DNA from: Microbacterium sp. SORGH_AS_0428
GTDB taxonomy: Bacteria > Actinomycetota > Actinomycetes > Actinomycetales > Microbacteriaceae
Assembly: GCF_031453615.1 (NCBI RefSeq)
Contig: NZ_JAVIZT010000001.1
Span: forward strand, 744,001 to 808,000
Direction: 5' to 3'
DNA length: 64,000 bases
This document shows positions 56,586 to 57,873 of the stretch, piece after piece. Both the position numbers and the translations under genes were made by a program. The notes beneath the pieces were generated by a model. The model did not search any database. It was not told the DNA's origin and saw only the letters and a program-made list of their open reading frames with translations. Positions within the stretch are counted from its first letter, which is position 1. Each line of letters starts with the position of its first letter.

Positions 56586-56670
56586 GCGACATCTGCACGA
56601 CCGCTGGGGCTGGTGCGACCCCGCGCGGCATGTGGGGCAACGGGAGACTCAACGACCGTGCAGATGTCAC
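56586..56670. repeat. 85-bp inverted-terminus element, copy 1
   Basis: It starts GCGACATCTGCAC and ends GTGCAGATGTCAC, near-perfect terminal inverted repeats of 13 bp. It has the same length as copies 2 and 3. It ends 1 bp before the stop codon of the DUF559 gene and fills the gap to the dapA start. The interior shares CTGGGG and CCCGCGCGGC-like blocks with the other copies. Confidence 0.8.
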
Positions 56671-56671
56671 G

Positions 56672-57508
56672 TCACCGAAGGGAGGCGATCCGCATCCGTG
56701 ACAACGTCGCCGAGATCGCGCGCTGCACGCGCTGCCAGTCGTGCACGACGAGCGCATAGTCGAAGCGCAGCGTCTCGTACCCCTGGGCAGCCGCCTCGGC
56801 ATCACGCACCAGGTCCTTGTGGCGCAGGCTCGCGCCGTCGTGGTTGAGGCGGCCGTCGACCTCGATGATGAGCCTGCCGTCGACCAGGAAGTCCACGACG
56901 CCGACCCCTCGGACGAGGACCTGGCACTCCAGCGAGACGCCGAGCAGACGCAGTCGCAACCGGAGGAGCGATTCCAGCCCGCTGTCGGCATCCGGACGAG
57001 CGAGGTCGACGAGCCAGCGGAAGCGGGCAGGGAGACGCCTTCGCACCTCGTCCCTGTCCGCCCGGTCGAGCAGCCCGAGGCGCCACGCCGACTCGAACGC
57101 GGCGAAGAAGCTCTCTCCGCCGCAACAGGCCGCCAGATGGACGAGCGCCTGCACGATCGGCACGATGCCGAACGCAGACGCGCCCGCATCCCGGTGCACG
57201 ATGCAGGCGCAGGACGGATGCGGGTGCGCGCGACCGTCGGGGCCGAGCCAGACGTGCAGTGCCGGCCGGTCCTCCAGCACCCACACACCGAGGACGCGGA
57301 GCGCCGCGGCACACGCGAGCTCCCCGCCGTGGGCTGCAGCGTCTCGGACATCGGGGTGCGCACCCAGCGCGTACACGCCTTTGCGCACCCGCTCGATCGC
57401 ACCACGATCGGCGGCGCGAGCCAGCATGCTGCGCGACGCACCGATCTGGCCGGCGCGCGCGACTCCGCCGAGTGCGCGCAGCCTGTCGGCGATCGATGCG
57501 GAGTCCAT
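56672..57508 (-). CDS. DUF559 endonuclease-like protein with AbiEi-type N-terminal helix-turn-helix
   Basis: A 278-aa protein. The C-terminal third (about residues 180-275) matches DUF559, a PD-(D/E)XK fold related to very-short-patch-repair endonucleases: VVDFLVDGRLIIEVDGRLNHDG holds the D and ExD catalytic residues. The N-terminal 60 residues (IADRLRALGGVARAGQIGASRSMLARAADRGAIERVRKGVYAL) resemble the winged-helix of AbiEi-type antitoxins. Function is unknown; DNA binding and cleavage is a family-based inference. It is flanked on both sides by 85-bp repeats. Confidence 0.8.
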   Translation of the reverse strand: MDSASIADRLRALGGVARAGQIGASRSMLARAADRGAIERVRKGVYALGAHPDVRDAAAHGGELACAAALRVLGVWVLEDRPALHVWLGPDGRAHPHPSCACIVHRDAGASAFGIVPIVQALVHLAACCGGESFFAAFESAWRLGLLDRADRDEVRRRLPARFRWLVDLARPDADSGLESLLRLRLRLLGVSLECQVLVRGVGVVDFLVDGRLIIEVDGRLNHDGASLRHKDLVRDAEAAAQGYETLRFDYALVVHDWQRVQRAISATLSRMRIASLR

Positions 57509-57635
57509 CCGTCCACCCTGTGCGTCCGCGCCCCGGACATGACGCTCCTCCGGCGGATGCGGGACGACTCACCGTTCGAGGCGCCGTGGGGAGGTTCGAT
57601 CGAGCTCGCACCGCGGGGCGGCACGCCGCGCCCAT
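57509..57635. other. Non-coding spacer upstream of the DUF559 gene
   Basis: Part of a 407-bp gap between the DUF559 gene and the divergent NUDIX gene. This part must contain the DUF559 promoter. I see no ORF with coding character and no clear -10/-35 pair. The rest of the gap is occupied by repeat copies 2 and 3. Confidence 0.4.
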
Positions 57636-57720
57636 GCGACATCTGCACGGAGCGTGGTGTCAGAGTCACCTCGCGGGGCACCGAGAGCACTCGCAGCGCG
57701 TCCCGTCGTGCAGACGTCGC
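57636..57720. repeat. 85-bp inverted-terminus element, copy 2
   Basis: It starts GCGACATCTGCAC and ends GTGCAGACGTCGC (12 of 13 positions complementary). Length 85 bp. The interior has CGTGGTG and CCTCGCGGGGCAC, which align with GTGGTG and CCCACGGGGCCC of copy 3. Confidence 0.85.
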
Positions 57721-57788
57721 GGTACCCACCGCCGGCACCGTGTCGACGGCGTGCGGCCGGCGCCTTCGCGGATTCGCCTCCAGGTGCG

Positions 57789-57873
57789 GCGACATCTGCA
57801 CGACCTGTGGTGCGCCTGTCGTCCCACGGGGCCCATGCGACTCTCGGTCACCGATCCGTCGTGCAGACGTCGC
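57789..57873. repeat. 85-bp inverted-terminus element, copy 3
   Basis: Same termini as copy 2 and the same 85-bp length; it starts 153 bp after copy 2 in the same orientation. It ends 42 bp before the NUDIX start codon. The left end reads GCGACATCTGCACGACC, identical over 17 bp to copy 1. Confidence 0.85.

What the first reader, a model, noticed from the sequence alone, without database searches (positions are those of the whole stretch)
56586..57873. Three 85-bp elements with 13-bp inverted ends around a DUF559 gene
At 56586-56670, 57636-57720 and 57789-57873 the sequence starts GCGACATCTGCAC and ends with (nearly) its complement; each unit is exactly 85 bp. Ends are conserved, interiors diverge but keep blocks such as TGG-G and CG-GGGC at the same offsets. 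Constant length with conserved ends and partly conserved core suggests a structured, transposed or RNA-forming unit (REP- or MITE-like), not chance. All copies are intergenic and bracket one endonuclease-like gene. I know no described family matching this.
Basis: partly seen in the sequence, partly recalled or inferred. Interest (0 to 1): 0.8.

Follow-up and report, generated by a model that had tools for sequence, protein, structure and literature searches.

The report
Nuclease genes with matching dispersed repeats
The three 85-base repeats belong to a family scattered through the bacterium's chromosome and appear to be the private DNA sites of the DNA-cutting-enzyme-like gene they bracket, an arrangement that recurs with different repeat sequences around many related genes in other actinobacteria.

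Summary
The own genome holds at least 20 copies, 19 exactly 85 bp. The bracketed gene encodes an AbiEi-type winged helix plus a DUF559 (Vsr/PD-(D/E)XK-like) domain. Its two paralogs in the genome are flanked by their own elements with unrelated arms: CCCGAACTCCTGC (71-73 bp, 21 complete copies) and GTCGGAG-based elements (read by eye). Among named relatives, not chosen for elements, 52 of 77 genes have length- and arm-matched inverted-repeat elements on both sides, against 0 of 77 displaced windows; class-wide 13 of 29 against 0 of 29. The link does not depend on the genomic neighbourhood. No RAYT-type transposase was found in 10 of 10 genomes searched. The arms behave as DNA half-sites rather than an RNA stem. 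Most likely reading: REPIN-like repeat families whose cognate partner is a restriction-fold nuclease. The gene-element association is shown; recognition, cutting and dispersal by the nuclease are inferred. Ten searches of an open-paper library found nothing that describes it.

The parts
56586..56670 (-). 85-bp element 1, directly downstream of the DUF559 stop codon (one base between)
57636..57720 (-). 85-bp element 2, upstream of the DUF559 gene
57789..57873 (-). 85-bp element 3, starting 153 bp after element 2 (doublet), 42 bp before the NUDIX gene
56672..57508 (-). presumed cognate gene: AbiEi_4 winged helix (residues 10-48) + DUF559 nuclease-like domain (residues 181-269), 278 aa

Best explanation
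The 85-bp units are non-autonomous, fixed-length inverted-repeat elements that are the cognate DNA sites of the AbiEi-DUF559 protein they flank. SHOWN: the elements are dispersed; genes of this family are very often flanked on both sides by an element pair with the same arms; arms differ between gene lineages and between the three paralogs of this genome; each of the three own paralogs has further copies of its own element type elsewhere; arms and total length are conserved while the interior drifts. INFERRED: the N-terminal winged helix reads each arm (and inner half-sites) as double-stranded DNA, so that an oligomer spans the element at a fixed distance; the PD-(D/E)XK-like domain nicks or cuts there; repair and recombination then copy the element or duplicate it in tandem with some flank. 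By organisation it works like a REPIN/RAYT unit (REPtron), with a restriction-fold nuclease in place of the HUH transposase.
For: Not selected for elements: named loci 52 of 77 at score <=5 against 0 of 77 displaced windows and 14 of 300 swapped flanks; class-wide 13 of 29 against 0 of 29 and 4 of 300; outside the own family 7 of 20. Gene-level null: of 224 called genes in the fetched stretches of four genomes, 5 score <=5: three are the DUF559 genes and two are one orthologous gene that happens to lie between family-1 elements. Not the neighbourhood: 14 of 22 with dapA in the flank, 38 of 55 with neither dapA nor NUDIX. Selected because element pairs were seen: homologs at 58-92% identity between two elements about 1 kb apart in G060, G310, G040, G249, G281, G147, G345. 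Own paralog 2: 71-73 bp, 21 complete copies, six doublets; arms in the reverse order give 3. Own paralog 3: GTCGGAG elements on both sides and at other places; reversed pattern 0. G506, another family: four 73-bp copies, two flanking the gene, one 32 kb from it and one 16 kb from another homolog; reversed pattern 0. At orthologous sites arms are 88-93% identical, interiors 75-77% with gap fraction 0.000-0.001, 60-bp flanks 72-75% with 0.07. E179, D206, D218, H223 invariant in 24 homologs. AbiEi and Rv2827c bind inverted repeats (PMC7319586, passages). PF01797 in 0 of 10 genomes.
Against: No binding or cleavage has been observed. At least 17 of 20 own copies have an element at the matching place in another of four species, so recent movement is not seen. 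At three presence/absence sites 136-198 bp in the bearer face 0-15 bp, not a clean 85, without visible target duplication, and gain cannot be told from loss. 25 of 77 named and 16 of 29 class-wide genes scored above 5. Displaced windows fall largely in coding DNA and are an easy control; one search is the harder one but covers four genomes. In G290 the gene is a remnant and in G310 it is broken into two frames near codon 52, yet 13 and 22 elements with intact arms remain. Pfam's AbiEi_4 is over its cut-off in the window protein but in only 1 of 10 more distant homologs, seven of which show none, so the winged helix is not established family-wide. Paralog 3 has Q for E216, and the script did not match its two elements in length (60 vs 79).
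Confidence: 0.6

Rival explanations
1. Regulon model: the protein is an AbiEi-like regulator and the elements are its operators, upstream of its own gene (autoregulation) and at dispersed target genes; the nuclease-like domain is secondary.
For: AbiEi and Rv2827c bind paired 23-bp inverted repeats in their own promoters (PMC7319586, passages); an element lies upstream of the gene; arms behave as DNA half-sites; family-3 elements show four half-sites (my reading); arms persist where the gene is broken or lost.
Against: The other flanking element lies downstream of the gene. The 20 own copies lie in 4 convergent, 7 divergent and 8 codirectional spaces and one ORF by my gene calls, not mainly before genes. 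Near-identical tandem doublets that include flank look like duplication.
Confidence: 0.2
2. Domesticated or extinct system: the elements once spread with the nuclease and are now kept for chromosome organisation or recombination control.
For: Vertical conservation at most own sites; arms conserved in G290 with only a gene remnant.
Against: Doublets and presence/absence differences between species show turnover.
Confidence: 0.1
3. Ordinary MITE-like elements moved by an unrelated transposase; the gene is an insertion hot spot.
For: Inverted ends, constant length, dispersal; no search for DDE transposases was made.
Against: Arms track the gene lineage and recur on both sides of it in different neighbourhoods and families; no target duplication seen at three sites.
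Confidence: 0.06
4. Structured RNA or transcription terminator.
For: Single strands fold better than shuffles (z -2.7 to -5.0 for the 11 elements folded).
Against: 0 of 14 stem pairs with a two-sided change; positions 6/80 independent (Fisher p 0.61) and 8/78 pair in only 35 of 66; no Rfam match.
Confidence: 0.04

Closest known systems
REPIN / RAYT (REPtron; REP-associated tyrosine transposase)
   Same: Dispersed elements of two inverted sequences at a fixed distance; repeats flank the cognate gene; several families in one genome, each tied to its own gene; tandem copies that include flank (passages of PMC3116915).
   Different: The gene is DUF559-type; PF01797 (Y1 transposase) is absent from 10 of 10 genomes. 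Family 1 and 2 ends carry no GTAG tag and their arms are not hairpins of their own.
TIRtron / TIRYT (RAYT-like genes flanked by terminal inverted repeats)
   Same: A gene between inverted repeats that in some species also form dispersed families (passages of PMC3733652).
   Different: Those genes are tyrosine transposases; 'Actinobacteria' and 'Microbacter-' do not occur in that paper's main text.
AbiEi / Rv2827c antitoxin-regulators
   Same: Winged-helix head and inverted-repeat DNA partner.
   Different: The C-terminal part is nuclease-like, the elements are dispersed and also lie downstream of the gene, and the neighbours are dapA and NUDIX, not a toxin gene.
Vsr-like DUF559 (PF04480) and MTES_1575 (PF18741) nuclease domains
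   Same: Domain family of these proteins; MTES_1575 was introduced as a Vsr-family REase domain from Microbacterium testaceum (passages of PMC3710099).
   Different: The two passages shown there concern fusions in conflict systems and mention no repeat elements; the rest of that paper was not read.

Membership tests
REP/RAYT (REPIN) | Y1 HUH transposase gene in the genome | tested here: not met
   PF01797: 0 of 10 genomes; the same search rings in 5 of 14 control genomes
REP/RAYT (REPIN) | Repeat ending in GTAG (or CGTC) | tested here: not met
   Families 1 and 2 end GCGAC..GTCGC and CCCGAAC..GTTCGGG. Several family-3 copies begin CGTCGGAG, others GGTCGGAG; that resemblance was not pursued
REP/RAYT (REPIN) | Repeats flank the cognate gene and also occur dispersed | tested here: met
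MITE of a DDE transposon | Target-site duplication at insertions | tested here: inconclusive
   Three presence/absence sites aligned, no duplication visible, but gain or loss is undecided
MITE of a DDE transposon | Autonomous transposon with the same ends | not tested
   No DDE family was searched for in the genomes
DUF559 / PD-(D/E)XK nuclease | Domain over Pfam cut-off with conserved acidic residues | tested here: met
   35 bits against 20.6; E179, D206, D218 invariant in 24 rows. Catalytic role is inferred
DUF559 / PD-(D/E)XK nuclease | Nuclease activity | not testable with these tools
   needs purified protein
AbiE type IV toxin-antitoxin | AbiEii toxin gene beside the AbiEi-like gene | tested here: not met
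   Neighbours are dapA and a NUDIX gene
Structured RNA family | Covarying stem or Rfam match | tested here: not met

The most novel reading that the evidence does not exclude
A class of selfish or domesticated repeat systems across Actinomycetes in which a restriction-fold (DUF559/MTES_1575) nuclease with an AbiEi-like DNA-reading head, not a transposase, recognises, spreads and maintains its own fixed-length inverted-repeat elements; gene lineages change element specificity, so each paralog owns a private repeat family in the same chromosome.
Probability: 0.45. Interest if true: 0.9.

Novelty: categorically new. Interest (0 to 1): 0.78.

Why it matters
If the nuclease reads its elements, a large family of DUF559-type proteins in actinobacteria gains a target and a role, and REP-like repeat families gain a second, unrelated enzyme type, which makes the question of how short repeats spread without a transposase directly testable. 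The natural variety of gene-element pairs would also be a ready-made record of how a restriction-fold nuclease changes specificity. Counted by organisation alone one could call it a new variant of the REPtron kind; because the enzyme and the element ends fail that kind's defining features, I rate it as new.

Tried and rejected
RNA element: not supported, for lack of covariation, although single strands fold well. RAYT-driven REP: rejected, no Y1 family in 10 of 10 genomes. Plasmid or phage origin of the gene: no match at E 1e-10 (plasmids) or 1e-8 (phages). Regulatory placement: contexts mixed;'s tally line 'co' lumps codirectional with convergent spaces, so I counted from its row list. A gene lying between two family-1 elements at G000 1985806/1986874 is not DUF559 and I take it as coincidence. 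One search's first flank test had no length constraint and separated less well (score <=3: 16 of 32 real, 14 of 300 swapped); one search replaced it. One search counted 'dapA-NUDIX locus' only where both genes were found (6 of 8, against 46 of 69), which left 14 loci with dapA alone in the second group; one search recounts this. Structure prediction was never accepted, so no fold comparison was made; the fold assignment rests on Pfam and one PDB match, 3hrl, E 0.00028.

Selection and bias: the seven homologs were fetched because element pairs had been seen there; some of the same genomes recur among the named loci (judged by equal contig lengths). The named set is the best 80 of 253 confirmed relatives, several from one strain or close pairs, so loci are not independent. 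Three of the 80 (L243, L256, L267) were dropped because a contig end cut a flank; L300 (the window's own gene) was left out of the class-wide set and the own paralog L324 kept. The 17 orthologous groups were chosen by hand and hold only elements that the model had found, which favours intact arms and near-85 lengths. The 66 elements are related copies.

Full report
Observation. The three 85-bp units are as described. The own genome (3.30 Mb, one contig) holds at least 20 full-length places, 19 of 85 bp and one of 84. The elements have an orientation; the consensus of 15-16 own copies is about GCGACRTCTGCACGRCCG...GGCGCC.CATCCGCC...CACATCNGCACCAC...TCGTGCAGAYGTCGC. A CATCNGCAC-like word recurs inside it (my reading). 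A genus search with the covariance model found matches at E <= 1e-4 in 54 of 366 genomes, own genome included, with 12 candidates scored per genome, so this is a lower bound.

What the gene is. The bracketed gene (56672-57508, minus) has an AbiEi_4 winged helix and a DUF559 domain, both over Pfam's cut-off. In 24 aligned homologs E179, D206, D218, H223 and D232 are invariant; that they form a PD-(D/E)XK-type active site is inference from the family. Of ten further homologs, five pass the DUF559 cut-off, one passes that of MTES_1575, and one has no Pfam match at all; AbiEi_4 passes in one, is weak in two and is absent in seven. 285 of 366 genus genomes have a homolog at E <= 1e-30. The plasmid and phage collections have none at the limits used.

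The link. In seven other same-genus genomes in which element pairs lay about 1 kb apart, the gene between them is a homolog at 58-92% identity; in G310 it is broken into two frames near codon 52. To test the link without choosing on elements, I took the best 80 named homologs (77 usable) and 29 class-wide ones. I asked for an inverted-repeat element in each 420-bp flank with the same length and arms; the score is the sum of mismatches. Score <=5: 52 of 77 and 13 of 29, against 0 of 77 and 0 of 29 for windows displaced outward, and 14 of 300 and 4 of 300 for flanks swapped between loci. Outside the window's own family it is 7 of 20. Of 224 called genes (the DUF559 genes included) in the stretches of four genomes, 5 score <=5: three DUF559 genes and one orthologous pair of another gene. 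The pairs do not depend on the neighbourhood: 14 of 22 with dapA in the flank, 38 of 55 with neither dapA nor NUDIX.

Private repeat families. The own genome has two more paralogs (38% identity). One matches MTES_1575 rather than DUF559 and is flanked by 71-bp CCCGAACTCCTGC elements; 21 complete copies of 71-73 bp exist genome-wide, twelve of them in six doublets 131-194 bp apart, against 3 for the arms in reverse order. The other is flanked by elements that I read as two nested inverted pairs of GTCGGAG, with further copies elsewhere and in one case extra 19-bp iterations. In G506, of another family, four 73-bp elements with arms GATCGTACTGACC exist: two flank the gene, one is 32 kb away, and one is 16 kb from another homolog. 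Among 42 confident loci arm similarity rises with protein identity (Mantel r 0.49, 0 of 2000 permutations), from 0.52 below 60% identity to 0.87 above 80%; shared ancestry can give part of this.

How the element is built. Across 17 hand-picked orthologous groups in four species, arms are 88-93% identical, interiors 75-77% and 60-bp flanks 72-75%; the gap fraction is 0.000-0.001 inside and about 0.07 outside. Length thus looks constrained although the inner sequence drifts, with the caveat that only model-found elements entered. Position 6 and its opposite vary independently (16 A-T, 13 A-C, 22 G-T, 13 G-C, two others, of 66; Fisher p 0.61), and 8/78 pair in only 35 of 66. This fits two DNA half-sites read separately at a fixed distance better than a stem.

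Dynamics. At least 17 of the 20 own copies have an element at the matching place in another of the four species. Three sites lack the element in one species; there 136-198 bp in the bearer face 0-15 bp and no target duplication is visible. In G290 the gene is reduced to two pieces (codons 36-101 and 202-258, 91% identical) and the upstream element ends within its right arm, while 13 elements remain. So elements outlive the gene, at least for a time.

Reading. The organisation matches what the passages of PMC3116915 report for REPINs and RAYTs: paired inverted sequences, a cognate gene flanked by them, several families per genome, tandem copies with flank. The Y1 transposase is absent (0 of 10 genomes). 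AbiEi-type proteins are known to bind pairs of inverted repeats (passages of PMC7319586). The simplest account is that the AbiEi-like head reads the arms and the nuclease domain acts there. Binding, cutting and spreading are inferred, and the regulon model stays open.

Literature. Ten searches of the open PMC library showed no paper linking DUF559 or MTES_1575 genes with repeat elements. Of the 14 papers naming DUF559 I saw titles and abstract starts only; of the 371 held, 20 were listed. Passages were seen of PMC3116915, PMC3733652, PMC7319586 and PMC3710099; no paper was read whole. Subscription papers and preprints are not covered.

Noticed in passing
G000:C1:1095944-1097289 (L159, L367; outside the window): Second paralog (MTES_1575-type) flanked by 71-bp CCCGAACTCCTGC elements, with 21 complete copies genome-wide.
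   Followed up: yes
G000:C1:1150000-1151100 (L160, L330, L331; outside the window): Third paralog flanked by elements with four GTCGGAG half-sites; further copies elsewhere, one with extra 19-bp iterations (L341/L342).
   Followed up: partly
L364:16739-17321 (G290): Remnant of the DUF559 gene with an internal deletion; the upstream element ends inside its right arm at TCGTGC, possibly a break point.
   Followed up: partly
L099:3332-4166 (G310): The DUF559 gene is split into two frames near codon 52, while 22 elements remain in that genome.
   Followed up: partly
L108:3494-3856 (G204): Three near-identical tandem elements 139 bp apart with quite different arms (GGTCCGTCTGTCGGACC).
   Followed up: no
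G000:C1:2629709-2629793 (L151): One own copy falls inside a called ORF, as does its G290 ortholog; the gene call may be wrong.
   Followed up: no
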